A stretch of DNA of 56,494 nt from Rufibacter ruber (lineage in GTDB: Bacteria; Bacteroidota; Bacteroidia; Cytophagales; Hymenobacteraceae): assembly GCF_001647275.1 (NCBI RefSeq), contig NZ_LRMM01000029.1, positions 1-56,494 on the forward strand. Reading direction: 5' to 3'. The notes below the pieces were generated by a model that was not told where the DNA came from, did no database searches, and saw only the letters and a program-made list of their open reading frames with translations. Positions 62-54,740 of this stretch are shown here, one piece after another. A program made the position numbers and the translations under genes. Positions within the stretch are counted from its first letter, which is position 1; the number at the start of each line of letters is the position of its first letter.

Positions 62-111
62 TTTTTGCGTTTTAGGGCTGTTTTTCAGAAAACAGGCGGA
101 AAACGCAAAAT
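62..111. repeat. Dispersed palindrome copy 1 (GCG-ended)
   Basis: The left arm tttttgcgttttagggctg and the right arm with aaaacgcaaaaa are near-complementary around a tttttcagaaaa centre. It belongs to the family found 23 times in this window. The extra T run before and A run after extend the stem, so it could act as a terminator on either strand. Confidence 0.8.
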
Positions 112-115
112 TTTT

Positions 116-327
116 CTGGCGCGAGTCTCTGGACTCGTGACTACGGATGAAGCGAGTCTCCAGACTCGCCGGGAACCGAGAGCTGGTGCTACATGAAATT
201 TCTCTATTGGATTTCTTTCTGGGCAAGAGCGGAAAGTAGCTCAGCCATGCGCTCGGTCGCTGCGGGGCAGCGAGGGTAGTCAGAGACTACCCCTTATCCC
301 AAGGCACAAGTCAGAGACTCGCGCCAG
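116..327. repeat. 212-bp block bounded by a 16-bp inverted repeat
   Basis: CTGGCGCGAGTCTCTG at 116-131 is the exact reverse complement of 312-327. Inside or overlapping are three further palindromes: CGAGTC-TCTG-GACTCG at 122-137, GCGAGTCT-CC-AGACTCGC at 152-169 and GGGTAGTC-AGA-GACTACCC at 274-292. No open reading frame fills the block. It could be a miniature mobile repeat or a structured RNA; no target-site duplication is evident beside the ends, so the type is left open. Confidence 0.6.
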
Positions 328-414
328 CTTTTTCTATTATCAAACTCAGGACTCTTGACTCAGAACTCTGAACTTCCTTTGACCTCGCAGCTCTTATGTG
401 CGCCTCTGTACAAG

Positions 415-454
415 CTGTTTTTGACCTGTTTTTCTGAAATCAGCTTAAAAACAG
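415..454. repeat. Dispersed palindrome copy 2 (CTG-ended)
   Basis: ctgtttttgacctgttttt pairs imperfectly with the right arm ending in aaaaacag. It lies only 21 bases before the start codon of the response regulator, so unlike most copies it would be in the 5' leader rather than a 3' end. Confidence 0.75.
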
Positions 455-475
455 TAATTTCAACCAACGCGCTGA

Positions 476-1867
476 ATGAACCCCATGATTTTAATTATTG
501 ACGATGACGTAGCCGTGCGGGCTTCCCTGAGCTTGTTGCTTAAACAGGCGGGCTATGCCACGGCCCAGGCGGCTAACCCCGCCGAGGCGCTGCAGGCTGC
601 GGCTACCCTGCGCCCGCAGCTTATGCTCCTGGACATGAACTTTTCCATGGAGACCACGGGCGAAGACGGTCTGCAGTTGCTGGGCCAGCTGAAGCAGCTT
701 TACCCGCAGGTGCCGGTCATTTTGATCACGGGCTGGGGTTCCATCACCCTGGCGGTAGAGGGCATCAAAGGCGGCGCGGCCGATTTCATCACCAAGCCCT
801 GGAACAACGACCATCTGCTGCAGAGCGTGAAGACGGCGCTGGAACTGGCGCAGCCTACCACTGAGGTTCCCGCAGGCAAGCTCACCCGCAAGCAGCTGAA
901 CGACCAGTATGACTTCTCCATGCTAGTGGGCGAAGACCCTGGCCTGCTGCAGGTGCTGCGCAACGTGGGTCAGATCAGCGCCACAGATGCCTCGGTGTTG
1001 ATTGAAGGCGAAAGCGGCACGGGCAAGGAGCTCATTGCTGAGGCCATTCACAAAAACAGCCATCGCCGCAAGGCACCGTTTGTGAAGGTGAACCTGGGCG
1101 GCATCTCGGCCAGCCTGTTTGAAAGCGAGATGTTCGGGCACCGCCGCGGCGCGTTCACAGACGCCAAAACCGACCGAGCGGGCCGTTTCGAGATGGCCAA
1201 CAAAGGCACTATTTTCCTGGATGAAATTGGCGAACTGGACATGGCCAGCCAGGTGAAACTGCTGCGCGTGCTGCAAGACCGCACCTATGAGGTCCTCGGC
1301 GACAGCCGCTCCCGCAACCTGGACATACGCGTGGTCTGCGCCACCAACCGCAACCTGCAGGAGATGGTGGCCGAGGGCAAATTCCGGGAAGACCTTTATT
1401 ATAGAATCAACCTGATTACCGTGAAGCTGCCCGCCCTGCGCGAACGCAACCAGGACATACCGCTGCTGGTGCAGCATTTTGTGAACAACCTCAAGAAAAC
1501 CTACCATAAGCAGGAGCTGCAGGTGAGTAATAAAGCCCTTAAATGGCTCAGAGAACAGCCGCTGCCGGGTAACATTCGGGAATTGAAGAACCTGGTGGAG
1601 CGCACGGTGCTGGTAAGTGGCAAAAGCCTGCTGGAGGTGGAGGATTTTCAGAACCAACTGCAGGGCGGCCTTAGAAAACTGGAGGAAAAGGCCCTGCCCA
1701 GTGTAGGGGCCATGACCCTGGAAGAGCTGGAGGCCAGCATGATTAAGAAATCTATGGCGTATTACCATAACAACGTGAGCAAAGTAGCCAAGGCTTTAGG
1801 CGTGAGCCGCGGGGCGCTGTACCGACGGCTGGAGAAGTTCAACATTCCGTATGACGCTCAGGAGTAA
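476..1867 (+). CDS. NtrC-family sigma-54-dependent response regulator
   Basis: A 463-residue activator with three parts in the usual order. The receiver domain covers about 4-125, with acidic pocket D9-D11, phospho-acceptor D53 in LLDMNF and K107. The AAA+ domain covers about 145-385, with Walker A GESGTGKE at 178-185, Walker B LDE at 248-250 and REDLYYR near 304-310. A Fis-type helix-turn-helix lies at about 430-458. The sigma-54 contact loop reads GAFTDA (225-230) instead of GAFTGA. It overlaps the following kinase gene by 17 bases, so the two form a two-component operon in which the kinase should phosphorylate D53. The target genes are not evident; an envelope or nitrogen-type stress role is only a guess. 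Confidence 0.95.
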   Translation: MNPMILIIDDDVAVRASLSLLLKQAGYATAQAANPAEALQAAATLRPQLMLLDMNFSMETTGEDGLQLLGQLKQLYPQVPVILITGWGSITLAVEGIKGGAADFITKPWNNDHLLQSVKTALELAQPTTEVPAGKLTRKQLNDQYDFSMLVGEDPGLLQVLRNVGQISATDASVLIEGESGTGKELIAEAIHKNSHRRKAPFVKVNLGGISASLFESEMFGHRRGAFTDAKTDRAGRFEMANKGTIFLDEIGELDMASQVKLLRVLQDRTYEVLGDSRSRNLDIRVVCATNRNLQEMVAEGKFREDLYYRINLITVKLPALRERNQDIPLLVQHFVNNLKKTYHKQELQVSNKALKWLREQPLPGNIRELKNLVERTVLVSGKSLLEVEDFQNQLQGGLRKLEEKALPSVGAMTLEELEASMIKKSMAYYHNNVSKVAKALGVSRGALYRRLEKFNIPYDAQE

Positions 1868-3155
1868 GTTTGTGCTGGTGGCCGTGCTCCTCTACGGGGC
1901 CATGCTGGTGCTGGCCTGGCAGCTGGTGGCCTACAACCGCTGGCTGTTTGTGGCCGCCGAGGTCTTGATTGTCGCCAGTTTGTTGTTTACCGTGAAGTTG
2001 TACACGTCTTTCGTGCGGCCGCTCAACCTCATTGCCGCGGGCGTGGAGTCCATCAGGGACCGTGATTTTTCGATCAAATTCCTGAAAACGGGCCAAAAAG
2101 AGGTAGACCAGCTGGTGGAGGTGTACAACCAGATGATGGAGGAGCTGCGGCAGGAGCGGGTGGTGCAGACCGAGAAACATTTTCTGCTGGAACGCCTGAT
2201 TGAAGCCTCGCCCTCGGGCATCATCCTATTAGATAGCCACGACCGCGTGGCGGGCCTGAACCCTGCGGCGGCGGTGCTGCTGCAGGCCAGCGGCAGAGAT
2301 CTGGTGGCCAAACCGCTGGCGGATCTGCCAGGGCATTGGGGTGCTTCATTGGGAAAATTGCCTAAAGATGAGCAGCGCATCATCAGGCCCAACGGCATTC
2401 AGACGTACCGCTGCCGCAAAATCAGGTTCCTGGACAAAGGCTACCACCGCTACTTTATTTTAATAGAGGAACTCACCCAGGAACTGCTGGAAAAGGAGCG
2501 CAACGCCTATGAGAAGCTGATCAGGATGATGTCGCATGAAATTAACAACTCCATTGGCGCGGTCAATTCCATTTTACACTCCTTCGCATATTTCTCACCG
2601 CAACTGGACCCGGGCACCCGCCCAGACTTTGACGAGGCGCTGCAGGTGTGCATCACCCGCAACCAGAACCTGGCCGGTTTCATGGCCAACTTTGCCAATG
2701 TGGTGCGCATACCGCCGCCTGCCAAGCAACCTGTGAGCCTGCATGAGCTGCTCCACAGCATTCAACGGCTCATGCTGCCCAGCGTTGAGCGCAAAGGGGT
2801 GTTGTGGCACTGGGAGCTGGACTCAGTTTCACCTACGGTGGAAGTAGACGTGCAGCAACTGGAGCAGGTGCTCATTAACGTGGTGAAGAATGCCGTGGAA
2901 GCTGTGGAGGAAGGTGGCTGGGTAAAGGTGAAAACAGTAGCGAACCCGCCACAACTGCTCATCCAGGACAACGGCCAAGGCATTGCGCCTGAGGTGCAGG
3001 AAAAGCTCTTTAGCCCGTTCTTCAGTACCAAAGCCAACGGCCAGGGCATTGGCCTGACCATGGTGCGGGAGATTCTGCTGCAGCACGGTTTCCCCTTCTC
3101 CCTGCAGACAGGCGCAGACGGCGTGACTACGTTTCAGACTCAGTTTGTTTCTTGA
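1851..3155 (+). CDS. Membrane sensor histidine kinase (HAMP-PAS-HisKA-HATPase)
   Basis: The 434-residue partner of the preceding regulator. Two membrane helices at about 5-27 and 31-50 are separated by only a few residues, so there is almost no periplasmic sensor. A HAMP-like linker follows (about 52-105), then a PAS-like domain (about 112-212). The phospho-acceptor is H229 in MMSHEINN. The N box is around N347, the G1 box DNGQGI is at 373-378 and the G2 box GQGIGL at 397-402. The lack of an external sensor domain suggests it reads a membrane or cytoplasmic signal, probably through the PAS domain. Translation is probably coupled to the upstream gene through the 17-base overlap. Confidence 0.94.
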   Translation: MTLRSKFVLVAVLLYGAMLVLAWQLVAYNRWLFVAAEVLIVASLLFTVKLYTSFVRPLNLIAAGVESIRDRDFSIKFLKTGQKEVDQLVEVYNQMMEELRQERVVQTEKHFLLERLIEASPSGIILLDSHDRVAGLNPAAAVLLQASGRDLVAKPLADLPGHWGASLGKLPKDEQRIIRPNGIQTYRCRKIRFLDKGYHRYFILIEELTQELLEKERNAYEKLIRMMSHEINNSIGAVNSILHSFAYFSPQLDPGTRPDFDEALQVCITRNQNLAGFMANFANVVRIPPPAKQPVSLHELLHSIQRLMLPSVERKGVLWHWELDSVSPTVEVDVQQLEQVLINVVKNAVEAVEEGGWVKVKTVANPPQLLIQDNGQGIAPEVQEKLFSPFFSTKANGQGIGLTMVREILLQHGFPFSLQTGADGVTTFQTQFVS

Positions 3156-3199
3156 CCTCACCCCCAGCCCCTCTCCCACAATGAGGGAGTTCTGCTGTT

Positions 3200-3239
3200 G
3201 CGTTTTTAGCTTGTTTTGGCCAAAACAGGCCGAAAACGC
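3200..3239. repeat. Dispersed palindrome copy 3 (GGCC-centred, GCG-ended)
   Basis: gcgtttttagcttgttttgg is followed by a right arm ending in gaaaacgc. The centre is the self-complementary ttttggccaaaa, without the CTGAA/CAGAA loop seen in most copies. It is downstream of the histidine kinase. Confidence 0.8.
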
Positions 3240-3287
3240 TTCTTGGTTTCCCTCGCTCTTTTTCTAAGCGAGAGAAATTATGTAAGT

Positions 3288-3327
3288 GCGTTTTTGGGCT
3301 ATTTTGGCTAAAACAGCCTGAAAACGC
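3288..3327. repeat. Dispersed palindrome copy 4 (GCG-ended)
   Basis: gcgtttttgggctattttgg has a right arm taaaacagcctgaaaacgc. The centre ttttggctaaaa resembles that of the copy at 3200, and the two lie 48 bases apart in the same gap. Confidence 0.78.
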
Positions 3328-3480
3328 TTGCTCAAGACCTGGCCGTGTCTTTCAGAGGGCGAGTGTCTCCGTCAATTTTAGAGGCTAACCAAATCCTGAA
3401 AATCAACCTCAATGCTGGGAATCCCTTTCCTGACAGAAAAGTTCTTTCAGGTTTTGAAAACCGGAGAGACAGAAGGAGGG

Positions 3481-3520
3481 CTGTTTTGGACCTGTTTTTC
3501 TAAAAACAGGCCCAAAACGC
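3481..3520. repeat. Dispersed palindrome copy 5
   Basis: ctgttttggacctgttttt is followed by ctaaaaacaggcccaaaacgc. It lies 28 bases beyond the 3' end of the leftward DUF72 gene and could terminate it. Confidence 0.8.
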
Positions 3521-3547
3521 ACTAATAGCTTTCGGGCGTTCTTGCGC

Positions 3548-5637: not shown

Positions 5638-5663
5638 GAGTCCATTGTTTTATTTAGGTTTAC

Positions 5664-5689
5664 TGCCAAGTCTGCCCTGCAGGCTTGGC
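5664..5689 (+). terminator. Hairpin after the RlpA-like gene
   Basis: GCCAAG (5664-5669) pairs with CTTGGC (5684-5689), with partial pairing inside the loop, followed by only three T residues. It is a weak terminator candidate, backed up by the larger palindrome at 5691-5736. Confidence 0.4.
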
Positions 5690-5690
5690 T

Positions 5691-5736
5691 TTCCTGTTTT
5701 GGAGCCGTTTTCAGAAAAACAGCCCCAAAACAGGAA
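5691..5736. repeat. Dispersed palindrome copy 6
   Basis: ttcctgttttggagccgtttt pairs with a right arm ending in ccaaaacaggaa. It lies between two rightward genes, after the RlpA-like gene. Confidence 0.8.
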
Positions 5737-5871
5737 AACTGAATTTTCTGTGTAGATTTTTGTTCCTTTAAACAAGCTCTCAGCAGGCAGGTAGCGGCAC
5801 CTTGGGGTAAAGCGTATACCATAGAGGGCGTAAACACGTTTAAGGCATTGAAAAGTGAAAGAAGTAGTGCT

Positions 5872-6802: not shown

Positions 6803-6854
6803 CTGTCTGTTTTGGCTGTTTTGGAGAAAACAGCCCCAAAACAGACAGTTTTTT
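6803..6854 (+). terminator. Palindrome copy 7 acting as intrinsic terminator
   Basis: ctgtctgttttggctgtttt pairs with a right arm ending in aaaacagacag and is followed at once by TTTTTT. This copy of the dispersed palindrome has all the features of a rho-independent terminator for the YwqK-like gene. Confidence 0.8.
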
Positions 6855-7139
6855 ATGGCCTTTCTGCTCTATGTGCCGGGGTAGAAGGAACAATACATTT
6901 TGCCCTCCCTGTCATCCTGAAAGGGCTGAGGGAACAGGTGGCTACGGTAGTAGCGGTCAACAGGGCCTACTCTGGTTCGCCATCTGTTTCCCCAGGATGT
7001 GATTTTGTAAGATTCAATTTTATTTCGGATTCCATTCATAAAAGACACTGTTCCCCTGGTTTGGTGAAACTGCTATGGGCAGCTGTGTGGCGGGTTCTTT
7101 GCGAGAGGCAGGGCGCCCGCGCGGCGGCGGGGCTGTTTT

Positions 7140-7180
7140 CCGTTTTAGGGCTGTTTTCTGAAAAGTAGCCCTAAAACAGG
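7140..7180. repeat. Dispersed palindrome copy 8 (AAAAGTAG variant)
   Basis: ccgttttagggctgttttc is followed by tgaaaagtagccctaaaacagg. The right arm carries AAAAGTAGCCC in place of AAAACAGCCC; the same change recurs at 38438, 39569 and, less closely, 43801. It lies 20 bases beyond the 3' end of yraN. Confidence 0.78.
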
Positions 7181-7199
7181 ATGTAAGGCCTTGCTGTTT

Positions 7200-17826: not shown

Positions 17827-17840
17827 CCTGTTAGCATGTT

Positions 17841-17883
17841 ATAAAATAAGAAAGGAGGCCTAACGCCTCCTTTCTTATTTTAT
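17841..17883 (+). terminator. Strong intrinsic terminator of the gld operon
   Basis: A perfect 19-bp stem: 17841-17859 pairs with 17865-17883 around a 5-base loop CTAAC, with a GGAGGC/GCCTCC core and an A/T-rich base that supplies TTTCTTATTTTAT on the 3' side. It works on both strands by symmetry. Confidence 0.88.
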
Positions 17884-19030
17884 AAATCTCCCATTTTGCT
17901 GGCTACATCGGCTACTAGGTTCAAAAAAAAGAACCCGCGCTCCCTACTTTACAATTGACCAAGCAGATGACTTCCGGGAATACATGAATACCGCTGCGGC
18001 ACTATTGCTCTACAAGTGCCGCAGGTTGTAAAACCCGCAAACCCAAGTTCGGGCGAACAGCCGCAGCAAATGTAAAGTCCTTTCTCTCTGATAGAGGTAT
18101 AATATGGAATGGGTGGGGCATAGGAAATATTATTGTACCTCAGCCATGCGTGCACCGGCAGGTAAATACCCGTCTTTATGAGCTTCTCCCGCTACCTTAA
18201 TACTCGTTTGGGTGCCTCTTAAGTGAGATTTCCCCTTTGCCCCCTTCCATGGGAAAGGTAGCGTTAGTAGCACGGAAGTAACTTCCGCGCCATAGAGGGC
18301 AAAAGAGATGCGGGGCAGCCGACTTATGGTAGTTGCAAACTGTTGCCATGATAGATACAGTTTAAATATCTTTAACCTGTATCTTCTTTTACCACTCCTG
18401 CTGTTGCTACTCCCTATTAATCCTCACTTCTGTCAGAAGCTATCTCATAATTAGGAAGCTTGAAACATCTGTTCTGTTTTTGGCCTGTTTTCAGGAAAAC
18501 AGGCCAAAACAGAGGTCACCCTACCCGTGCAAAACCTAGCACTTTAATCAGACATGTATGGGACAGATTCTACTTATTTCTGCTGCTGGCACCTCTGTTA
18601 ATTAGCACTTCTGTCTCTGGCTGATTGCGCAGCACGGGCTCGCCACAGGCCAGCGGAACAGCAGCGGTTACCTGCAGAGACAGACAAAAGAAGAGGAGCT
18701 GATCAGAAGAGGAACCCAAACTGATTCTGGCGGTGGTGAGCGCCTCTGTTACTACGGTGCCGAAGGCGTAGTTTTAACAGCAGTGTGAGCGCCAGGACGG
18801 GGCCCCTCGGCCGTGAGCGCTTACCGGTAAAGAAGAAACAACACAGCTATTAAACCACCGCGTCAAACGACAAAGCCAGGGGAAACAGCAGACTATTCAC
18901 CGCCAAAAGTGGACTACACATACTTGCCGCTCTTCTTACCATAAGAGCCCCAAACCACACATTTTAACAACAGGAGCAACTTCTAAAAGAGCAGCAGAAT
19001 CTACACATCAGCAGAAACTACATTTAAAGC
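17884..19030. other. 1.15-kb stretch without a recognisable gene
   Basis: All six frames are broken into short frames with no domain I recognise. Visible structures are hairpins GGTTC-A8-GAACC (near 17919-17937), GCGGCAC/GTGCCGC (about 17994-18020) and GTTCGGGCGAAC (near 18044), a family palindrome at 18473-18513, and GTGAGCGC three times (18736, 18785, 18813). No tRNA, tmRNA, SRP or RNase P signature was found. It may be decayed sequence or hold an unrecognised RNA. Confidence 0.5.
18473..18513. repeat. Dispersed palindrome copy 9
   Basis: tctgtttttggcctgtttt pairs with a right arm aaaacaggccaaaacaga around TCAGG. It is inside the gene-free stretch rather than beside a stop codon. Confidence 0.8.
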
Positions 19031-19074
19031 TTCTGTTTTAGGGCTGTTTTCTGAAAAACAGCCCTAAAACAGAA
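19031..19074. repeat. Dispersed palindrome copy 10
   Basis: ttctgttttagggctgtttt pairs almost perfectly with a right arm ending in gccctaaaacagaa around CTGA. It lies 17 bases beyond the stop of uvrC and is placed to terminate the leftward sprE-PBP-uvrC transcript. Confidence 0.85.
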
Positions 19075-23205: not shown

Positions 23206-25788
23206 TTATTGGTAATTTTTTTCAAAGAAGGCTACATACTGCTCAATATCCCGCAATTGCTGAAGCGCCGCGAGGTTGGCATCTGAGATAACAAAGGTAG
23301 CAAATTTCGGGCCTTTTATAGAAGCAAGCGGGGAGCTGCGGGCCGTTTGTAATTTAGCGTACTGCTGACTGCCTTTAAAATCTGGGAAGGGGGTTATCAC
23401 AAGCAAGACCGTACCCTCATTAAAGGGCAGCGTAGTTATTGTAAGGTTCTTACGAGGGTGAAACCTGCTGTTGTACTGTTCAAACCCTTTGATGAGCTGA
23501 CTCAGGGCAAGGGTATCTGCTGAATGGGCTACTACAAACGAGTGCCGAGCGGTGAGATCAGCTTTGTATTGGGGCAGAACGGCCACTGGTGCGGCAGGGG
23601 CCGCGGGTTCTGGAGCCTTTGCCAGTTCGCCGCTCTCATAGCGCTGGTGCAGGGTTAGAAACTCTTTGGCTTTAGGCAGAAGCTTGCTCTCTGGGTATTG
23701 TTGGATAAACTGCTCCAGACCAGCCTTGAACGTGTCTGCGGGTTGGGTGCGGCCCACTATCATTGTTCGCAGAAAGGCTACCTGGTCCGGAATGTCGTTT
23801 CCGGGGTATTTTTCTGAAAGTTGGTCTAAAACAGCATTGGCCGGGGCATACGCCTCTGTGTTATACAGCACAAACGCAGAGTCATAAAGGGCATGGGCGG
23901 CCGCATTCTCTGCAGAATAGGTGCGCAGGAAGTCAGGCTGATCAATGAGCTTGGTATACTTAGACGTAGGAAAACGCTCCCGCAGCGCGGCGGCATATTT
24001 CTGGGCAGCCTCTGTTTGTTGCAGGGCATTGGCCATCACGTACAGGCTGTAATACACCTCTGAGGCATGTGACGAAGCGGGAAAACGGCGCAGCAGGGTT
24101 TCAAAAGTGCTAATAGCCTCTTCAGGCTCCCTGAGCCGCTGCTGGTAAATATTGCCCAGTGTGAAATAGGCTTCTTCCAGACGGGTGTTAGACGCCTGCT
24201 GCTGTGCCGGGGTAAGCGGAATCGCCGCTAGGTACTCAGCCTGTTTTTGAGCATTTGCTTCGGCCAGGGCCACACTGTCAACTCCGGCTACGGTCTGTAC
24301 GCCAGCTGTCAACCCTATGCTGCCAGAGAGGGCGGCCATGCGGCGCCAGTTGTCCTGGAGTGGCCGTTCACCCCAGGTGCGGAGGAAATCGTTGCGGGCG
24401 TTGGCTATGACTACCGGGTTGTCATAGTACCAGGTGCCGCCTTGCGTGCCAAAGCCGGCGGCAGGTCCTCTGGAGGCGGCGGTGCCGGTGGCGCCAGGGG
24501 CTGCGGCGGCCTGAGCGGCCAGGCGCTGCGCTTCCTGCTCATTGGCAATCTGCTGGGCTACACGCTGCGCCCGCTCCTCTGTTCCTAAACGTGCCAGGGC
24601 CTGCAGACTGTCTTCGGTTCTGATGATGTCCAGTTGCTGCACAAAAGCCGTTAAGACGGTTTTCCGGTCAGTTAATTCTTCATAGCCCAGAGCGGTAGAG
24701 GGCAATAGCTGAAGGGTGCTGTCATAGTATGCCTGCGCCAACTTGTATTGCTCCAGATGCTCATAATGAATCTGGGCCGTGAGCAGGTAAGAATACGCCT
24801 TCTGGTTTCTGTTGGTGGTAGAGGCGGCGGTAGACTGCTTGAGATAGCCTAACGCGTCCTGGTACTCGTTCTGGCGCAGCTGAAGCTTTGCCAGGTCATA
24901 GTAGATTTTATCCAGGTACTCTTTGTTTTTTTCGTCTTTGGCCAGTTTGAACAGGAAAGACTCAATTTCTTCTTTGGCTTTGGCGTCTTTCAGCTCTGTG
25001 ACCTGCGCCAGGTTCAGCTGCGCGTAGAAGCCCAGCTCATAGGGCGGGTTCTTTTTAAGGATGCGGGCATAGTGCGGGTACGCCTTGTCATCCTGGTTGG
25101 TGGCCTGGTACAGCTGCCCCAGTATGAACCTGATTCTGGACTCCTGGTCTTTCGCCTTCGCAAACGGGACGGCCCTTTCCAGGTTTTCAATCACCACCGG
25201 CAGGGTATTCTGCTCACTGGCAAGTTGCGCCCTGGTCAGCAGAAGCGCCAGGCCATTCTCCTCATTCATGCGTTCCTTTCTGAACAGTTCAGAGACCGAG
25301 ATGGCCGCATCATAGTCTTTCTGCCGCAGGTAGGTGCGCATCAGCCAGACCAGGGCCTCATGCCTGGCATGGCGGTCTTTACCGGTGGTCTGCACAAACC
25401 GGAACGCTTTAATGGCTTCTATTTCTTCGCCCTGATAGTAACGGGCTTTGCCAATAAGCACGTAGCAGTCATCTACCCATTTAGATTTAGGGTGGCGGGC
25501 AATAGGAAAGGACGCGCGTTTGATAACTTCCTCAAGGTCTGGCTGCAGCGTTTTCAGGACCGTGGTGTCCAGCGGCGGAAGAATGTCTAGAATGCGGTTG
25601 TAGTCATTCACGTGGGCCGCCTCTATTTTGGCCTCTACTTCCTTCATTTTCTCCCGCGCCAGAAAGTACCCGTTGTACCGGGCATTGAGGTTATGGAACC
25701 GCCGCCCCAAAAAGCCGGTGCTGTCAGGGGAACAGCCAGCCAGAAGGGGAACTAAGAAAATAAAAAGAAGAAAACGTGTCTGCTTCAA
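23206..25788 (-). CDS. SprE/PorW-like T9SS lipoprotein with TPR repeats
   Basis: About 860 residues. No ATG exists near the N-terminus. I choose the TTG at 25788 because MKQTRFLLFIFLVPLLAGC is an ideal lipoprotein signal peptide; another TTG at 25830 would add 14 residues. After the lipid-modified cysteine comes RRFHNLNARYNGYFLAREK, a segment typical of SprE/PorW. Tetratricopeptide-like helical repeats span most of the protein, with an Ala/Gln-rich interruption at about 420-470. The family is needed for T9SS function and gliding and is thought to link GldK/GldN or PorP-type barrels to the rest. It heads the leftward operon with the PBP and uvrC. Confidence 0.86.
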   Translation of the reverse strand: MKQTRFLLFIFLVPLLAGCSPDSTGFLGRRFHNLNARYNGYFLAREKMKEVEAKIEAAHVNDYNRILDILPPLDTTVLKTLQPDLEEVIKRASFPIARHPKSKWVDDCYVLIGKARYYQGEEIEAIKAFRFVQTTGKDRHARHEALVWLMRTYLRQKDYDAAISVSELFRKERMNEENGLALLLTRAQLASEQNTLPVVIENLERAVPFAKAKDQESRIRFILGQLYQATNQDDKAYPHYARILKKNPPYELGFYAQLNLAQVTELKDAKAKEEIESFLFKLAKDEKNKEYLDKIYYDLAKLQLRQNEYQDALGYLKQSTAASTTNRNQKAYSYLLTAQIHYEHLEQYKLAQAYYDSTLQLLPSTALGYEELTDRKTVLTAFVQQLDIIRTEDSLQALARLGTEERAQRVAQQIANEQEAQRLAAQAAAAPGATGTAASRGPAAGFGTQGGTWYYDNPVVIANARNDFLRTWGERPLQDNWRRMAALSGSIGLTAGVQTVAGVDSVALAEANAQKQAEYLAAIPLTPAQQQASNTRLEEAYFTLGNIYQQRLREPEEAISTFETLLRRFPASSHASEVYYSLYVMANALQQTEAAQKYAAALRERFPTSKYTKLIDQPDFLRTYSAENAAAHALYDSAFVLYNTEAYAPANAVLDQLSEKYPGNDIPDQVAFLRTMIVGRTQPADTFKAGLEQFIQQYPESKLLPKAKEFLTLHQRYESGELAKAPEPAAPAAPVAVLPQYKADLTARHSFVVAHSADTLALSQLIKGFEQYNSRFHPRKNLTITTLPFNEGTVLLVITPFPDFKGSQQYAKLQTARSSPLASIKGPKFATFVISDANLAALQQLRDIEQYVAFFEKNYQ

Positions 25789-25923: not shown

Positions 25924-26005
25924 CAATTTTTTAGGCTCTTGCTACCATACGTAAATAGCTGCGCTGCAGATAAAGTAAGGTAGGCCAACTCCTGTAAAAA
26001 AAAAG

Positions 26006-26045
26006 CTGTTTCTGGCCTGTTTTCTGAAAAACAGGCCAGAAACAG
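26006..26045. repeat. Dispersed palindrome copy 11
   Basis: ctgtttctggcctgtttt pairs fully with its right arm aaacaggccagaaacag around CTGA. The outer position is TCTGG/CCAGA here against TTAGG/CCTAA at 19031, a compensated change. Confidence 0.85.
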
Positions 26046-26100
26046 AAAATATAATGACGCATTAAAGAAGTGGCTTACACGCTTATGCCCGCAGCTTGGT

Positions 26101-26139
26101 GCGTTTTCGGCCTGTTTTGGCCAAAACAGGCGAAAACAG
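26101..26139. repeat. Dispersed palindrome copy 12 (GGCC-centred)
   Basis: gcgttttcggcctgttttgg is followed by ccaaaacaggcgaaaaca. The centre is ttttggccaaaa, like the copy at 3200. It ends five bases before the -33 element of the atp promoter, so it lies just upstream of a promoter rather than at a gene end. Confidence 0.8.
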
Positions 26140-26143
26140 AAAA

Positions 26144-32074: not shown

Positions 32075-32108
32075 AGCGCCCATTGATGAAATGGGCGCTT
32101 TGCTTTTA
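32075..32108 (+). terminator. Intrinsic terminator of the atp operon
   Basis: A perfect 10-bp stem AGCGCCCATT/AATGGGCGCT (32075-32084 and 32090-32099), loop GATGA, then TTGCTTTTA. It starts 24 bases after the atpG stop. Confidence 0.8.
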
Positions 32109-32190
32109 TACCTATCCCATGTTACCTCCATATTAAATTTGGAGATGTTTGTTAAAATGGGTGGAGGTCTGGCAAAGCAAAGATATATTT

Positions 32191-32230
32191 ACGTTTTTGA
32201 GCCGTTTTCAGAAAAATAGCTAATAAACGC
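32191..32230. repeat. Dispersed palindrome copy 13 (degenerate)
   Basis: acgtttttgagccgttttc is followed by agaaaaatagctaataaacg; several pairs are lost, so this looks like a decayed member. It ends 17 bases before the phosphatase start codon, in its 5' leader. Confidence 0.6.
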
Positions 32231-32247
32231 AGGCCAAAACAACCAAA

Positions 32248-35536: not shown

Positions 35537-35543
35537 CCAAAAG

Positions 35544-35583
35544 GCGTTTCTGGCCTGTTTTTCTGAAAACAGGCCGAAAACAG
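35544..35583. repeat. Dispersed palindrome copy 14 between convergent genes
   Basis: gcgtttctggcctgtttttc is followed by tgaaaacaggccgaaaacagg. It occupies nearly all of the 52-base gap between two convergent stop codons (7 bases from one, 5 from the other), a position expected of a bidirectional terminator. Confidence 0.85.
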
Positions 35584-35588
35584 GAATA

Positions 35589-38182: not shown

Positions 38183-38496
38183 GGTCTTCTTTGTTATAGG
38201 GTAGCTGCGTCGGTTAGGAGCATCATCAAAATAGGGGAACCCGGGTTACTGTAACCGGTTTTGTGCGTAGAGCCTGTTTAAAATAAGTCTTTCGTGCTGC
38301 CAAGGTCCCGCCAGGAACCTGCCTTGCCGCATTTTTTGCCTGGTAGCCACTGCTCCCAGAAAAAAAACTCATCTGGAGAACCTCCCTTTGCCCCGCTTCA
38401 ACAATAATGACAACATGTAAACATGCCCTTAAGTTGATTTCCTGTTTTAGGGCTGTTTTCCCAAAAGTAGCCCTAAAACAGGAAACAGTGTATATG
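38183..38496. other. Gap between the two PAP2 genes
   Basis: Apart from the palindrome at 38438-38485, no gene, promoter match or repeat is recognised in this 314-base stretch. Confidence 0.5.
38438..38485. repeat. Dispersed palindrome copy 15 (AAAAGTAG variant)
   Basis: tttcctgttttagggctg pairs with a right arm agccctaaaacaggaaa; the inner part is ttttcccaaaagtag. It begins 12 bases beyond the stop of the second PAP2 gene. Confidence 0.8.
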
Positions 38497-39339: not shown

Positions 39340-39568
39340 AACAAACGTGGTCTGGTGAGTAGAACTTCCGTTTGTACGCGCAAACAGTGGTCTAGTTATC
39401 CTTCACCATATTTTGCAGATTCCCCCCCCCTTCCGCCCGCGGCCGGTCCATTGCCTTGGGAACAAAGCGCCGGGGCCGGGCATGTTGTACAGCCGAGCGG
39501 TTCTTACGGGAGAGGCGGTGGCTTGCCGGCGGGTGTGGCAGTTTTGCCTGGGGCTATTGCGGAAGGTG

Positions 39569-39608
39569 CTGTTTTGGGGCTGTTTTCCTAAAAGTAGCCC
39601 TAAAACAG
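39569..39608. repeat. Dispersed palindrome copy 16 (AAAAGTAG variant)
   Basis: ctgttttggggctgttttcc is followed by taaaagtagccctaaaacag. It ends five bases from the stop codon of the leftward MORN/TonB-C gene. Confidence 0.8.
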
Positions 39609-39612
39609 AATG

Positions 39613-42347: not shown

Positions 42348-42365
42348 TCTTGAGCAGATAAGTTT

Positions 42366-42406
42366 TGCGTTTTGGAGCTGTTTTAAGAAAAACAGCTCCA
42401 AAACAG
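42366..42406. repeat. Dispersed palindrome copy 17
   Basis: gcgttttggagctgttttaa pairs with gaaaaacagctccaaaacagg. The inner arm is GGAGCTG/CAGCTCC, another compensated variant of GGCCTG/CAGGCC. It begins 18 bases after the stop of the NHL protein. Confidence 0.82.
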
Positions 42407-42461
42407 GACCTGAGCTGATAACAGGTACAAACAGACGCTTGCGGCAGTGACGGAGTTATCC

Positions 42462-43243: not shown

Positions 43244-43795
43244 TTACAGAATACGGCTCAGCGTCTCTGGGGTCATGCGCAGGTACGAGGCAATGTACTT
43301 GCGGGGCACCAGCTGAAAGATGTGCGGGCTTCGGGCCAGTAAGCGTTGCAGCCGCTGCTCAGGAGTAAGGAGCTGCAGGTCAATCTCGCGCTCCATCTTT
43401 CCCATGAGTGCCTTCTCCAGCTCCAGCCGCCAGAATTTGCCAAATACCGGCCGTTTTTCCTGAATTGTGTCAAAATCAGATTTAGTGATGGCCAGCAGCT
43501 CAGCCTTGCGCAGCGCCTGAATGCAGTACGTAGACGGCTGCTGCGTCACCAGTGAAGGGAACGCCGTGACCAGCGTGTTGGGGTAGGCAAAACCCACGCA
43601 GATGTTCTCTGCCGGGGTGGGGTAATAGAGCCAGAAGGCGCCACTCAGCACAAAGTACAGGTGCTGCTCCACCTGCCCCTCCCTGACCAGGAAATCGCCC
43701 CGGCTCACCGTCACCTTTTTATGCCACAGCGGCACAAAGGCGGCAATGTCATCTGGGGTGAAATAGGGCACTTGTTGAAGCAGTGACGCCAGCAT
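43244..43795 (-). CDS. Crp/Fnr-family transcriptional regulator
   Basis: 183 residues. A cyclic-nucleotide-binding-like beta domain fills about 20-115 (VSRGDFLVREGQVEQHLYFVLSGAFWLYY). The C-terminal part ends in PRKYIASYLRMTPETLSRIL, which is the helix-turn-helix, but the protein stops right after SRIL where most relatives have several more residues. The DNA-recognition helix is therefore barely complete. No oxygen-sensing cysteine cluster is evident. Its ligand and targets are unknown; a role over the adjacent DinB or serine dehydratase gene is possible. The upstream start codon is five or so bases from a family palindrome. Confidence 0.88.
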   Translation of the reverse strand: MLASLLQQVPYFTPDDIAAFVPLWHKKVTVSRGDFLVREGQVEQHLYFVLSGAFWLYYPTPAENICVGFAYPNTLVTAFPSLVTQQPSTYCIQALRKAELLAITKSDFDTIQEKRPVFGKFWRLELEKALMGKMEREIDLQLLTPEQRLQRLLARSPHIFQLVPRKYIASYLRMTPETLSRIL

Positions 43796-43800
43796 GGGTT

Positions 43801-43841
43801 GTGTTTTGGAGCTGTTTTCAGAAAAGTAAGCCAGAAACAGG
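43801..43841. repeat. Dispersed palindrome copy 18 (imperfect)
   Basis: gtgttttggagctgttttc is followed by agaaaagtaagccagaaacag; inner pairing is partly lost. It sits just upstream of the Crp/Fnr start codon in a divergent region, not at a gene end. Confidence 0.65.
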
Positions 43842-44020
43842 CGCTGGAACTAACCCCGGGTTTTTTTCTTTATCAGGTGGGGGAGAGGGTGTAGCAGAAG
43901 CCCAGATCTTTCCTGTAAATTTAAAGGTTAATTGCTCCTGCGCAACCTTAAACGCGTAAGGAAGAACCAGAGGGGCACCTTGGTGCGCCTATTGCTAAAA
44001 CTAACATTCGTATAAACAAG

Positions 44021-44929: not shown

Positions 44930-44983
44930 ATGAAAGCTGTTTTGGACCTGTTTTCTGAAAAACAGGCCTAAAACAGCTTTCAT
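44930..44983 (+). terminator. Palindrome copy 19, extended stem after sdaAA
   Basis: atgaaagctgttttggacctg pairs with a right arm ending in aaaacagctttcat, giving the longest stem of the family (54 bases in all) around TTTTCTGAAAA. It begins four bases after the sdaAA stop codon and is the likely terminator. Confidence 0.78.
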
Positions 44984-45256
44984 TTAAGAGCTTCTTTACT
45001 TTTTGCTTTTGCAGGCGAGAACGGGGAGCAAAAGGTTCTTCTATCCCGTTTTTAGTGCGGCGTAGCAGCGTTATGGGGCGAGGCAACCGCGAGGGCAGGT
45101 TCTATTGAGGCCCGTTTGCAGCGCAAAAGACAAATGGAAACAGGCTCTAAGAATTCACAGTTGCCTAAACGGCAATACTCTCCCCCTGAGAGCTTTTTCC
45201 AGCATACGCTCCCCCTGATTTCTGCTGAATCTATTGCCATCTCCCTCCATGCATTT

Positions 45257-45296
45257 ACGTTTTAGGCCTCTTTTTCAGAAAACAGGCCTAAAACGT
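45257..45296. repeat. Dispersed palindrome copy 20
   Basis: acgttttaggcctcttttt pairs with a right arm aaaacaggcctaaaacgt around CAG, with one mismatch in the inner arm. It is upstream of prmA. Confidence 0.8.
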
Positions 45297-45331
45297 ACTT
45301 CTTCTTCTGTAATTTCGTTCAATTTAAACTT

Positions 45332-51481: not shown

Positions 51482-51521
51482 CCGCCCGTTGGTGGCTAGT
51501 CTTTCCACTGAAAGCCAGAGG

Positions 51522-51570
51522 AACCCGTTTTTGGCCTGTTTTTCAGAAAACAGCAAAAACGGGTTTTCTT
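51522..51570 (+). terminator. Palindrome copy 21 after the giant gene
   Basis: aacccgtttttggcctgttttt pairs with a right arm aaaacagcaaaaacgggtt and is followed by TTCTTTTT. It lies 41 bases after the stop and should terminate the transcript. Confidence 0.78.
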
Positions 51571-51618
51571 TTTAAGGGATCTGCGTAAGCAGGAGGGGCG
51601 TAGGTAGAGGCTTTTTCC

Positions 51619-51626
51619 TATATTTG
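51619..51626 (+). promoter_or_regulatory. Possible -7 element of plsY
   Basis: TATATTTG matches TAnnTTTG exactly but no TTG is found 17-21 bases upstream. The leader would be about 70 bases. Confidence 0.4.
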
Positions 51627-51702
51627 AAAACTCATTTTATGGCGCAGCGGGCTGTTTCAGTATCATCTGCCGCTAAACCAAACCGTTAACCAGAAGAGTT
51701 CT

Positions 51703-52341: not shown

Positions 52342-52353
52342 ATGTTTCAACAG

Positions 52354-52385
52354 AAGCCATTCCTGCTCAGGGTGGCTTTTTTATT
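52354..52385 (+). terminator. Intrinsic terminator of plsY
   Basis: AAGCCATTC (52354-52362) pairs with GGGTGGCTT (52370-52378), with two G-T pairs, loop of seven bases, then TTTTTTTATT. It lies 12 bases after plsY and 28 before the start of the M20 peptidase. Confidence 0.8.
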
Positions 52386-52413
52386 CTACACACCTCTCAC
52401 CAAACCATCTGCT

Positions 52414-53784
52414 ATGAACGCTTACATAGAAGAGAATAAAGACCGTTTCATTCAGGAACTGCTGGACCTGCTGCGTATCCCGTCTGTGAGTGCTGACCCT
52501 GCTTTTAAAGGCGATGTACTAAAAGCCGCTGACTTCCTGAGGGAGAAGCTGGCGCAGGCCGGAGCTGAAAACGCCCAGTTGTTTGAGACCGCCGGCAACC
52601 CTATTGTGTATGCCGAAAAAATCATAGACCCCGCACTGCCCACGGTTCTGGTGTACGGCCACTATGACGTGCAGCCCGCTGACCCCTATGAACTGTGGGA
52701 CTCGCCGCCGTTTGAGCCGGTGATCAAAGATGAAAAAATCTATGCCCGCGGGGCCTGTGATGACAAAGGCCAGACCTATATGCACGTGAAAGCTTTTGAG
52801 GCCATGATGCAGCACCAGGCGCTGCCGTGCAACGTGAAGTTCATGATTGAGGGCGAAGAGGAAGTAGGCTCTGTGAACCTGGCCACTTTTGTGAAAGAGA
52901 ACAAAGATCGGCTGAAAGCCGATGTGATTGTGATCTCAGACACGGGTATGCTGGCCAATGACATCCCGTCTGTCACTACCGGCCTGCGTGGCCTCAGCTA
53001 CCATGAGGTGGAGGTGACAGGGCCCAACCGGGATCTGCACTCCGGGCTGTACGGCGGGGCGGTGGCCAACCCCATCAACATTCTCTGCAAGATGATTGCC
53101 TCCTTGCATGATGAGAACAACCACATCACCATTCCCGGTTTCTATGATGACGTAGAGGAACTGAGCCAGGAGGAGCGGGCCGAGATGGCGCGGGCGCCGT
53201 TCAGCCTGGAGGCTTATAAAAAAGCCCTTGATTTACCTGATGTGCACGGCGAGGAAGGCTATGTGACCATGGAGCGCAATTCTATTAGACCAACACTGGA
53301 TGTGAACGGTATCTGGGGCGGGTACACGGGTGAGGGAGCCAAGACGGTGATTCCGTCTAAAGCGTATGCCAAGATTTCTATGCGCCTGGTGCCGCACCAG
53401 AGCCATGAGGAGATCAGTGCATTGTTTCAGAAGCATTTTGAGTCTATTGCCCCGCCTAGCGTGAAAGTAGTGGTGAAACCGCACCATGGCGGAGAACCGG
53501 TGGTGACGCCTACCACGTCGGCGGGATACCAGGCGGCGGCCAAGGCCATGGAAGATACGTTTGGCAAAAAGCCGGTGCCGGTGCGCAGCGGGGGCAGTAT
53601 TCCTATTGTGGCCATGTTCAAGTCTGAGCTGGGGCTGGATACGGTGCTGATGGGCTTCGGGCTGGACTCTGATGCCATTCACTCGCCCAATGAGCACTAT
53701 GGCATTTTCAACTTCATGAAAGGTATAGAAACCATTCCCAGGTTCTACCAGCACTTTGCGCAGCTGCACCAGGCGCAGGCGTAG
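52414..53784 (+). CDS. M20-family metallodipeptidase
   Basis: 456 residues from ATG 52414 (MNAYIEENKDRFIQELLDLL); the frame from 52342 runs through the plsY terminator and is rejected. Dizinc site residues are H83 and D85 in YGHYDVQP, D116 in GACDDKGQ, the catalytic Glu group in IEGEEEVGS (146-152), with D and H ligands later. The dimerisation lid domain spans about 195-340. It is close to the carnosinase/CNDP-like dipeptidases and should cleave small peptides in the cytoplasm; the exact substrate is unknown. Its stop codon forms the first base of a palindrome. Confidence 0.93.
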   Translation: MNAYIEENKDRFIQELLDLLRIPSVSADPAFKGDVLKAADFLREKLAQAGAENAQLFETAGNPIVYAEKIIDPALPTVLVYGHYDVQPADPYELWDSPPFEPVIKDEKIYARGACDDKGQTYMHVKAFEAMMQHQALPCNVKFMIEGEEEVGSVNLATFVKENKDRLKADVIVISDTGMLANDIPSVTTGLRGLSYHEVEVTGPNRDLHSGLYGGAVANPINILCKMIASLHDENNHITIPGFYDDVEELSQEERAEMARAPFSLEAYKKALDLPDVHGEEGYVTMERNSIRPTLDVNGIWGGYTGEGAKTVIPSKAYAKISMRLVPHQSHEEISALFQKHFESIAPPSVKVVVKPHHGGEPVVTPTTSAGYQAAAKAMEDTFGKKPVPVRSGGSIPIVAMFKSELGLDTVLMGFGLDSDAIHSPNEHYGIFNFMKGIETIPRFYQHFAQLHQAQA

Positions 53785-53831
53785 TTTCTGTTTTAAGGCT
53801 GTTTTCAGAAAAACAGCCTTAAAACAGAAAC
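53784..53831. repeat. Dispersed palindrome copy 22, touching a stop codon
   Basis: gtttctgttttaaggctg pairs perfectly with a right arm cagccttaaaacagaaac around TTTTCAGAAAA. Its first base is the last base of the TAG stop of the M20 peptidase, and its last bases run into the terminator at 53828. Confidence 0.88.
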
Positions 53832-53862
53832 CCCGTTGCTCTTTGGGCAACGGGGTTTTTTA
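53828..53862 (+). terminator. Intrinsic terminator of the M20 peptidase
   Basis: A perfect 12-bp stem AAACCCCGTTGC/GCAACGGGGTTT (53828-53839, 53847-53858), seven-base loop, then TTTTTTATT. It overlaps the end of the palindrome at 53784-53831, giving two hairpins back to back. Confidence 0.88.
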
Positions 53863-53885
53863 TTACCAGTGGGCGTGGGCCAGCT

Positions 53886-54536
53886 CTATCTGCTGATAGG
53901 GAACCCCACAGATAGCTGAAACAAAGAATGGCGGGCGTCTTTGAAGTCTTCATTGTTCATGTTCACTTTTTCTGTGAAGTCAGTGAAGGCGCCGTTGTAG
54001 CGCAAGCCTAGGGTGATTCCGCCGGAGGTGGCAAAACCCACGCCTGCGGCATAACCAATTTCAAAATCTGAGTAGTTGTCTTTGCTCTTGGTGCTGGTTT
54101 CACTGGTGACCAGTTCACCGTCAATATATTTCTTGGTCTTGTCATTGATGCTGAGCAGGTAAGATGCCTGCGGACCCGCCTCAAAGAAAAGCGGGCCGGC
54201 TTTGACACGGGCCAACACCGGAATATCTATGTAGTTGAAGTTGGCGGAGCCTTCATAGCGGGTTTCGCCCAGCGGCGTGGCAATGACTTTGTCATCATAC
54301 TTGAACCCTTTGTTTGAGTAAAGCACTTCGGGCTGAATAGAGAAGAAGTCGCCCACAATAGGTGCATTCAGGTACAGGCCGGCATGAAAGCCCAGCTTAT
54401 TGTTAAAACGTGACTCCTCTTTTAAATCACCAGAAAGGTTGGAGTAATTCACGCCTCCTTTTATCCCGAAACTTGATTGCGCCTGTGCGGCATAAGACGC
54501 TACTACGGCGGCCACTAAGATGAATAGCTTTTTCAT
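53886..54536 (-). CDS. Outer-membrane beta-barrel (PorT-like), paralog 1
   Basis: 216 residues with a signal peptide ending near AQAQS. It is a small porin-family barrel with SSFGIKGGVNYSNLSGDL, FSIQPEVLYSNKGFKY, LARVKAGPLFFEAGPQASYLL, YAAGVGF and GLRYNGAFTDF, ending QLSVGFPISR. It shares these landmarks with the two following genes. Such eight-strand barrels of the OMP_b-brl type have mostly unknown function. A palindrome lies upstream at 54699-54740. Confidence 0.88.
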   Translation of the reverse strand: MKKLFILVAAVVASYAAQAQSSFGIKGGVNYSNLSGDLKEESRFNNKLGFHAGLYLNAPIVGDFFSIQPEVLYSNKGFKYDDKVIATPLGETRYEGSANFNYIDIPVLARVKAGPLFFEAGPQASYLLSINDKTKKYIDGELVTSETSTKSKDNYSDFEIGYAAGVGFATSGGITLGLRYNGAFTDFTEKVNMNNEDFKDARHSLFQLSVGFPISR

Positions 54537-54698
54537 AATGTTATGAGTTAAATTAGTTCCATTGGTGGGAACTTTATTTCAAAGACTGTGCCTGTTTTTA
54601 CAAAAGAGAGGTGTGGCTGCTATTTATTTGGTTTTGTTCTTTTGTAAATGCCTCTATATGAGGGGGACTTATTTGGGAACAGCTGGTTTTGGGAATTT

Positions 54699-54740
54699 GC
54701 TGTTTTTGGGCTGTTTTTCAGAAAACAGCCCAAAAACAGC
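54699..54740. repeat. Dispersed palindrome copy 23
   Basis: gctgtttttgggctgttttt pairs with a right arm aaaacagcccaaaaacagc around CAG. It lies between the first and second barrel genes, 30 bases beyond the terminator of the second. Confidence 0.85.

What the first reader, a model, noticed from the sequence alone, without database searches (positions are those of the whole stretch)
62..54740. A 23-copy family of approximately 40-bp palindromes with compensating arm changes
Nearly every intergenic gap at a gene end holds a hairpin of the form (C/G)(T/C)GTTTTnGG(C/G)CTGTTTT-loop-AAAACAG(G/C)CCnAAAAC(A/G)(G/C). The inner arms vary in step: GGCC/GGCC at 26006, GGGC/GCCC at 19031 and 54699, GAGC/GCTC at 42366, AAGGC/GCCTT at 53784, with outer flanks such as ATGAAAG/CTTTCAT at 44930. 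Covariation in unrelated copies indicates that the hairpin itself is maintained. Most copies sit just after stop codons, and several have T runs, suggesting a dominant terminator or REP-like family peculiar to this lineage. No transposase of the REP-associated type is in the window.
Basis: partly seen in the sequence, partly recalled or inferred. Interest (0 to 1): 0.75.

Follow-up and report, generated by a model that had tools for sequence, protein, structure and literature searches.

The report
Fixed-position DNA palindromes unique to Rufibacter
One bacterial genus carries hundreds to thousands of similar 44-base palindromes between its genes; they stay at the same places from species to species while, in several species, their spelling has changed in step, which points to an unknown factor that reads them as DNA.

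Summary
The palindromes are real: 24 in the window, 228 in a 456-kb sample of this genome (about 2,700 extrapolated), none in the reversed sample or in 79 non-Rufibacter loci (1.6 Mb). A covariance model gives 103-150 matches of 150 scored in each of 16 Rufibacter genomes, and 0-2 in each of 46 genomes of other Hymenobacteraceae genera. Arm covariation is genuine. There is no U tract, and downstream of stops A.C mismatches equal G.T ones, unlike canonical terminators, so RNA folding seems not to be what is selected. No inspected Y1/RAYT gene had family hairpins close on both sides; 9 of 19 RAYT-type loci had other palindromes. The main discovery: positions are fixed. Where this genome has a site, 99 of 115 orthologous gaps have one; where it has none, 7 of 187 do. 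Several species have their own dialect. Constraint falls on four A/T tracts. Best reading: a genus-wide DNA recognition signal, mostly at transcription-unit borders, read by an unidentified factor.

The parts
65..108 (.). palindromic site
   Evidence: scan score 61, 17 of 20 pairs
413..456 (.). palindromic site, 19 bp upstream of the start of the sigma-54 response-regulator gene (476)
   Evidence: score 49; a site upstream of the ortholog in 8 of 12 species compared (16-17 bp in six, 34-35 bp in two)
3198..3241 (.). palindromic site
   Evidence: score 47, 42 bp after the stop at 3155
3286..3329 (.). palindromic site
   Evidence: score 45
3479..3522 (.). palindromic site
   Evidence: score 55, convergent gap, 25 bp from a stop; 12 of 12 orthologous gaps occupied, but 8 of those gaps are 1.9-2.4 kb long
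5692..5735 (.). palindromic site
   Evidence: score 62, tandem gap; exactly one site in 12 of 12 orthologous gaps
6803..6846 (.). palindromic site whose left inner spacer is two bases short
   Evidence: score 33, 14 of 20 pairs in register
7138..7181 (.). palindromic site
   Evidence: score 59, 18 bp from a stop
18472..18515 (.). palindromic site
   Evidence: score 48, gldN-uvrC convergent gap
19031..19074 (.). palindromic site, 20 of 20 pairs, 17 bp after the uvrC stop
   Evidence: score 71; orthologous gap occupied in 13 of 15 species
23793..23836 (.). weak match inside the TPR-protein gene
   Evidence: score 29, 11 of 20 pairs; may be chance or a relic
26004..26047 (.). palindromic site in a divergent gap before the ATP synthase genes
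   Evidence: score 65; gap occupied in 13 of 15 species
26099..26142 (.). palindromic site
   Evidence: score 31
32189..32232 (.). site 15 bp upstream of the pafA start
   Evidence: score 32; 11-19 bp upstream of the ortholog start in 11 of 15 species at score >=20, 14 of 15 at score >=8
35542..35585 (.). palindromic site filling a 52-bp convergent gap
   Evidence: score 60; 12 of 15 orthologous gaps occupied
38440..38483 (.). palindromic site
   Evidence: score 58, 13 bp from a stop
39567..39610 (.). palindromic site
   Evidence: score 58, 2 bp from a stop
42365..42408 (.). palindromic site
   Evidence: score 56, 17 bp from a stop; only 3 of 7 orthologous gaps occupied
43799..43842 (.). site 3 bp upstream of a start codon (gene 43244-43795, minus strand)
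   Evidence: score 39, only 10 of 20 pairs; 4-6 bp upstream of the ortholog start in 7 of 8 species
44935..44978 (.). palindromic site
   Evidence: score 61, 8 bp after the serine dehydratase stop
45255..45298 (.). palindromic site
   Evidence: score 56
51523..51566 (.). palindromic site with an asymmetric arm
   Evidence: score 20
53786..53829 (.). palindromic site, 20 of 20 pairs, 1 bp after a stop
   Evidence: score 64
54698..54741 (.). palindromic site, 19 of 20 pairs
   Evidence: score 68

Best explanation
The 44-bp palindromes are a genus-wide DNA recognition signal at ancestral, fixed positions in the intergenic DNA of Rufibacter, mostly at borders of transcription units. Shown by calls: one family; about one site per 2 kb in this genome; essentially confined to the genus; almost only intergenic; positions conserved across species, in the gaps examined closely to within some bp; dialects in several species; strongest constraint on four A/T tracts; G.T/A.C parity. 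Inferred: that a trans-acting, dyad-symmetric DNA-binding protein (nucleoid-associated, insulating or transcription-boundary factor) reads GTTT-N9-TTT-N4-AAA-N9-AAAC, and that drift of its preference, coupled to the sites, makes the dialects. Template-switch repair between the arms may add to the covariation.
For: Fixed positions: 99 of 115 orthologous gaps occupied where this genome has a site, 7 of 187 where it has none; 85 of 100 if orthologous gaps over 1 kb are dropped, and 7 of 94 for empty G000 gaps of at least 120 bp (my sums). Gene level, not independent across species: 3' sites shared 147 of 203 against 16 of 358; 5' sites 30 of 39 against 18 of 516. Distances kept: 11-19 bp before pafA, 3-6 bp before the gene at 43795. 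Genus limit: 0-2 covariance-model matches in each of 46 other Hymenobacteraceae genomes, 3 of them not zero (105 candidates scored per genome), 0 in 79 other loci. Dialects: G012 CTCATTT, G004 GTTTA, G013/G006 GTTTTTGG. DNA level: G.T 236 and A.C 222 for tandem sites downstream of stops, against 128 and 58 in canonical terminators. Divergence in the two closest species pairs: A/T tracts 2-9% at 11 of 12 positions, flanks 19-21%, loop 35%. Several conserved sites have only 10-16 of 20 arm positions paired.
Against: No binding protein was identified or sought systematically. Excess covariation at spacer positions is not what a plain protein site predicts. Concerted re-spelling is not universal: orthologous sites are less alike than sites within either species in 15 of 42 species pairs, mostly those with G012, G004, G013 or G000, but more alike than sites within either species in 8 of 42 (my count), and on average slightly closer than random cross-species sites (8.7 against 9.4 of 34 positions). 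G008 has few sites (12 in 120 kb), so the signal cannot be indispensable everywhere. The gap after 42347 is occupied in only 3 of 7 orthologs. Enrichment right behind stops also fits a role in RNA 3' ends.
Confidence: 0.45

Rival explanations
1. A family of bidirectional transcription terminators or 3'-end stabilising RNA hairpins, perhaps factor-dependent, that became a standard gene end of the genus.
For: Crowded within 20 bp after stops; 42 of 46 convergent gaps carry one; a 52-bp convergent gap is filled by a site. In G003 and G014 convergent gene ends with a site have fewer canonical terminators (12 of 60 against 24 of 50), in G008 0 of 4 against 15 of 24.
Against: No U tract; no G.U excess; sites in divergent gaps and 3-20 bp before start codons at conserved positions. 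Over all Rufibacter loci canonical terminators are not rarer than elsewhere (88 of 236 convergent gene ends with a site and 46 of 92 without, against 25 of 80 in 100 kb each of four other-genus genomes), and in G000 29 of 33 tandem or convergent gaps with a canonical terminator also hold a site.
Confidence: 0.22
2. A REP-like palindrome, spread early in the genus by a tyrosine (Y1/RAYT) or other transposase and now vertically inherited.
For: High copy number, palindromic, extragenic, occasional neighbouring pairs 76-95 bp apart; Y1 proteins in 15 of 16 genomes. Family sites lie 138 bp downstream and about 0.5 kb upstream of the C100 RAYT of G000, and within about 0.5 kb of two others. Ten of 19 RAYT-type loci inspected show no palindrome of their own, so a cognate pair could be missed.
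Against: Nine of 19 RAYT-type loci have other palindromes beside them (AATCCGGAAG, AAACTTCC, AGACTCGC and AGATTGGC types), three IS200-type loci a fourth kind; 22 of 45 Y1 matches were inspected. G006 has no Y1 match but a strict family. Between G003 and G014 50 of 68 sites are shared; by eye most of the rest look decayed, not inserted; 3 of 74 mapped sites gave a gap under 10 bp, one of them with a site present, the other two not followed up. Fixed positions with changed dialects are not what copying from a master predicts.
Confidence: 0.15
3. Palindromes kept perfect by replication template switching (quasipalindrome correction), with little selection.
For: Multi-position compensated changes at an orthologous site with the same loop (G003/G014 at 86982); 44 of 100 left-arm changes compensated against 0.27 +- 0.04 with a borrowed right arm; A.C/G.T parity.
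Against: Cannot by itself keep the GTTT/TTT/AAA/AAAC consensus or restrict it to one genus; A/T tracts are more conserved than flanks; in G006/G013 0 of 9 changes were compensated.
Confidence: 0.08
4. A DNA uptake signal of natural transformation, kept and re-spelled by uptake-driven molecular drive, as in the dialects of Neisseriaceae.
For: One genome-wide motif with species dialects, as in the DUS case (PMC3630211, passages read); both strands alike.
Against: Only 6 of 228 sites lie in called genes although 77% of the sample is coding; intragenic DUS are common (PMC3630211, passage). Half-sites nearly always have a partner (190 of 198 with <=2 mismatches). The motif is much longer than a DUS (length of DUS recalled).
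Confidence: 0.1

Closest known systems
DNA uptake sequence dialects of Neisseriaceae
   Same: One genome-wide sequence per species with dialects between species, often as inverted pairs at gene ends (PMC3630211, passages).
   Different: DUS are 10-12 bases (recalled) and commonly intragenic (same passage); here a 44-bp palindrome, 6 of 228 in genes.
REP/REPIN palindromes with RAYT transposases
   Same: Extragenic palindromes in high copy with lineage-specific sequence.
   Different: No cognate RAYT found, no GTAG or CGTC tag in the logo (the two superfamilies as in the title, abstract start and one passage of PMC3733652), positions fixed across a genus.
Intrinsic (Rho-independent) terminators
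   Same: Hairpin-forming, enriched after stop codons.
   Different: T tract in the 5' arm and A tract in the 3' arm, no U tract after the stem, no G.U excess.
HIP1 of cyanobacteria
   Same: Palindrome iterated through the genomes of a lineage (PMC4390886, abstract start in a search listing).
   Different: HIP1 is the octamer GCGATCGC, discussed there with two methyltransferases; here 44 bp and intergenic.

Membership tests
REP/REPIN-RAYT | Extragenic palindromes in high copy | tested here: met
   228 sites in 456 kb, 6 in called genes
REP/REPIN-RAYT | Cognate RAYT bracketed by the same palindrome | tested here: not met
   22 of 45 Y1 matches inspected: none with family hairpins close on both sides; 9 of 19 RAYT-type loci beside other palindromes, 10 without; G006 has no Y1 match. 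23 matches were not inspected
REP/REPIN-RAYT | GTAG or CGTC tag at one end | tested here: not met
   Near-symmetric logo of 104 copies without such a tag
REP/REPIN-RAYT | Presence/absence at otherwise identical sites (mobility) | tested here: inconclusive
   Shared 50 of 68 in one pair and 8 of 8 in another; two candidate empty sites not followed up
Intrinsic terminator | U tract directly after the stem | tested here: not met
   TTTT within 12 nt in 22 of 114 sites after a stop
Intrinsic terminator | RNA pairing under selection (G.U tolerated over A.C) | tested here: not met
   236 to 222 against 128 to 58 in canonical terminators
Intrinsic terminator | RNA 3' ends at the site | not testable with these tools
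   no RNA data held
DNA uptake sequence | One genome-wide motif with species dialects | tested here: met
   clear in G000, G012, G013/G006 and G004, weak in others
DNA uptake sequence | Short motif, single copies common, also inside genes | tested here: not met
   190 of 198 half-sites paired; 6 of 228 in genes
DNA uptake sequence | Enhances DNA uptake | not testable with these tools
   needs a transformation assay
Genome-wide protein-read DNA signal | Positions conserved between species | tested here: met
   99 of 115 against 7 of 187
Genome-wide protein-read DNA signal | A specific binding protein | not tested
   no candidate sought systematically

The most novel reading that the evidence does not exclude
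Rufibacter carries hundreds to thousands of fixed DNA landmarks per genome, read by an unidentified sequence-specific factor that marks borders of transcription units, and in several species the whole set has been re-spelled together: a dialect system like DNA uptake sequences but built of 44-bp palindromes in intergenic DNA.
Probability: 0.38. Interest if true: 0.85.

Novelty: new variant of a known kind. Interest (0 to 1): 0.62.

Why it matters
High-copy palindromes are usually explained as mobile (REP) or as terminators. Here they keep their places across a genus while in several species their sequence has changed in concert, which suggests a common reader or driver. Finding it would expose an unrecognised global DNA-binding system or a new case of molecular drive, and sixteen sequenced species with differing dialects make coevolution of sites and reader directly testable.

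Tried and rejected
RAYT/REP: PF01797 in 16 genomes and flank inspection of 22 of the 45 matches. One search picked the wrong strand for some minus-strand loci; one search repeated nine of them. Rfam: no match at gathering threshold in the window. The first gene caller was too strict and missed gldM; replaced and again; genes under 80 aa or 60 aa were left out of contexts, and starts are unverified. tRNA ends as a terminator test: only 3 tRNA genes in 60 loci. A second synteny test around G000:C1 93-96 kb failed because synteny is lost; 5 comparable gaps only (2 of 2 and 0 of 3); replaced by the gene-level test, which includes the window's genes. A further anchor protein had no close ortholog (best 43% identity). 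Phage carriage: one IMG/VR contig for the G000 dialect, none for the G012 dialect. Papers: Rufibacter with palindromes (2 papers) or with terminators (1), Hymenobacteraceae with intergenic repeats (0): none relevant by their listing; general searches on REPs, concerted evolution, REPIN and template switching listed no description of this family; only listed papers were looked at. Alignment A1 was chosen for good pairing, so its pair counts are biased upward; one search is the fairer test. The constraint profile uses 47 of 91 sites, those that aligned without gaps, found in one species of each pair. Fisher values treat species as independent and overstate certainty. In one search a family hairpin followed by T's can itself count as a canonical terminator. 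After checking this report against the calls I found that the RAYT evidence covers fewer loci, and the dialects fewer species, than first drafted, and lowered the best explanation from 0.47 to 0.45, raised the REP rival from 0.13 to 0.15 and lowered the novel case from 0.40 to 0.38.
Full report
What is there. The window is contig C88 of a 5.50-Mb, 166-contig genome. The closest gldM match is Rufibacter sp. XAAS-G3-1 (83%), then Pontibacter at about 60%. That record's contig is 175,616 bases long, the same as contig C72 of G009, which is placed in the window's genus. So the genus is Rufibacter (Hymenobacteraceae). The logo of 104 exact copies is TT-CTGTTTTnGGsCTGTTTT-nnnn-AAAACAGsCCnAAAACAG-AA. 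A weight-matrix plus pairing scan, built from 62 sites of several species, finds 24 sites in the window and 228 in a 456-kb sample of the genome at score >=20, 0 in the reversed sample, and a best score of 5 in 79 non-Rufibacter loci. The sample is not random: most of contig C1, parts of four contigs chosen for Y1 transposase matches (C35, C97, C100, C112), and the window. Extrapolation gives roughly 2,700 sites.

Distribution over organisms. The exact core CTGTTTTNNNNAAAACAG occurs 1063 times here and 3-316 times in 15 other Rufibacter genomes, reversed controls 0 or 1. The covariance model R1 gives 103-150 matches of 150 scored candidates, both strands counted, in 16 of 16 Rufibacter genomes. 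In a draw of 60 genomes of the family it gives 0-2 matches in each of 46 genomes of five other genera, three of them not zero (stricter filters, 105 candidates scored). It gives none in 79 loci, 1.6 Mb, outside the genus, against 430 strand matches in the 456-kb sample.

Placement. Of 228 sites 129 lie in tandem gaps, 62 in convergent, 28 in divergent gaps, 6 in called genes and 3 at edges; 42 of 46 convergent, 93 of 189 tandem and 21 of 47 divergent gaps of at least 44 bp hold one. Of the 191 tandem and convergent sites, 53 start 0-19 bp after a stop and 10 overlap it, against about 25 if placed at random in the same gaps.

No cognate RAYT found. Y1 transposase matches occur in 15 of 16 Rufibacter genomes, 45 in all. 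I inspected 22. Three are IS200-like with AATGGGTT hairpins. Of 19 RAYT-type loci nine have other short palindromes beside them and ten show none. None has family hairpins close on both sides. Family sites do lie near some: 138 bp downstream and about 0.5 kb upstream of the G000 C100 gene, 226 bp downstream of the G001 gene in L094, and a short family-like hairpin 170 bp downstream of the G000 C112 gene. That is not unusual at one site per 2 kb. G006 has no Y1 match but a strict family.

Probably not selected as RNA. After the stem there is no T tract: TTTT within 12 nt in 22 of 114 sites nearest to a stop, and 8 of 114 before it. Reading hairpins on the sense strand, G.T mismatches equal A.C ones: 236 to 222 for tandem sites within 80 bp, 382 to 350 with convergent ones within 60 bp. 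Canonical terminators, found by a rule that treats both mismatches alike, give 56 to 27 in Rufibacter loci and 72 to 31 in other loci. The two sets differ, p = 5e-5. Canonical terminators are as common at convergent gene ends in Rufibacter (88 of 236 with a site, 46 of 92 without) as in four genomes of other genera (25 of 80). Against this, in G003 and G014 convergent ends with a site have fewer of them than ends without (12 of 60, 24 of 50), and in G008 0 of 4 against 15 of 24; in G000, G012 and G013 there is no such deficit.

Fixed positions. Around the window, gaps where G000 has a site have one in 99 of 115 orthologous gaps of up to 15 species; gaps where it has none have one in 7 of 187. 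Long gaps could be filled by chance: without orthologous gaps over 1 kb the first figure is 85 of 100, and for empty G000 gaps of at least 120 bp the second is 7 of 94 (my sums). Four of the 15 site-bearing gaps had no comparable ortholog, and one (after 42347) is occupied in only 3 of 7. Distances are kept: 50-73 bp after the stop at 5637 in 12 of 12 relatives, 11-19 bp before pafA, 3-6 bp before the minus-strand gene starting at 43795. A gene-by-gene test over 1.75 Mb of relatives gave 147 of 203 against 16 of 358 for 3' sites and 30 of 39 against 18 of 516 for 5' sites; many species per gene, so not independent.

Dialects. G012 uses CCGTTTTCGGGCTCATTT, G013 and G006 CGTTTTTGGCCTGTTTT, G004 CGTTTAGGGGCTGTTTT; G001, G007, G009 and G010 share a looser common spelling. 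In 42 of the 45 pairs of ten species (three had too few orthologs) orthologous sites differ at 8.7 of 34 arm positions on average, random sites of the two species at 9.4, sites within a species at 7.0 and 8.7. For G000-G012 the figures are 9.8, 9.6, 7.2 and 6.0. Orthologs are less alike than sites within either species in 15 of 42 pairs, mostly with G012, G004, G013 or G000, and more alike in 8 of 42, the sisters G013-G006 (4.5 against 5.5 and 6.8) among them (my counts). So positions are inherited everywhere, while in the species with strict dialects the sequence has been re-set in concert.

What is constrained. In the two closest species pairs, 47 gaplessly aligned sites of 91 diverge 2-9% at 11 of the 12 core positions of the four A/T tracts, 35% in the loop, 19-21% in the flanks. 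Sites with only 10-16 paired positions are conserved too. Covariation between arms is real (one-arm choice; 44 of 100 changes compensated against 27% with a borrowed arm in G003/G014, but 0 of 9 in G006/G013). The most economical reading is a dyad-symmetric DNA site read by a protein, with arm-to-arm copying during replication as a possible contributor. The protein, and what it does at unit borders, is inferred, not shown.

Comparison with what is known. The nearest precedent known to me for species-wide re-spelling of a genome-wide motif is the DNA uptake sequence (PMC3630211, passages; how far DUS positions are kept between species is recalled, not checked). The present motif fails its other features: length, single copies, presence in genes. 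REPs (PMC3733652, abstract start and one passage) share form but not the tag, the RAYT or, as far as tested, the behaviour. No description of this family appeared in the listings of the searches made.

Noticed in passing
L092, L096, L098, L100, L101, L103, L104, L106 and G000:C112 (L143): Rufibacter RAYT-type genes (most about 182 aa) with short palindromes of their own beside them, of several kinds (CTTCCGGATT/AATCCGGAAG, GGAAGTTT/AAACTTCC, GCCAATCT/AGATTGGC, GCGAGTCT/AGACTCGC): several RAYT-REP pairs in one genus.
   Followed up: partly
window 32075-32099: Inverted repeat AGCGCCCATT/AATGGGCGCT after atpG; the same arm occurs in the uvrC-yjeF interval of five other species, a variant in G012, a striking sequence conservation for an ordinary terminator.
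   Followed up: no
G012 and G005 stretches (L123, L164-L168; L113, L169-L173): A second over-represented motif, GCCGTCGGCC/TCGGCCGA: 48 TCGGCCGA in 120 kb of G012 and 18 in 120 kb of G005, about 2 expected in each.
   Followed up: no
window 17839-17885: A perfect hairpin with 21-base arms directly after gldN, of canonical bidirectional-terminator make; similar hairpins lie in the loci of relatives.
   Followed up: no
window 23793-23836: A weak family match inside the TPR-protein gene, one of 6 matches in called genes; chance or relic not decided.
   Followed up: no
L204 1271-1314: A 39-kb IMG/VR contig carries one good family site in the 3,987 bases held, perhaps a prophage of a Rufibacter.
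   Followed up: no
G000 sample: Called coding density is about 0.77 against 0.79-0.91 in the other Rufibacter stretches; long intergenic gaps.
   Followed up: no
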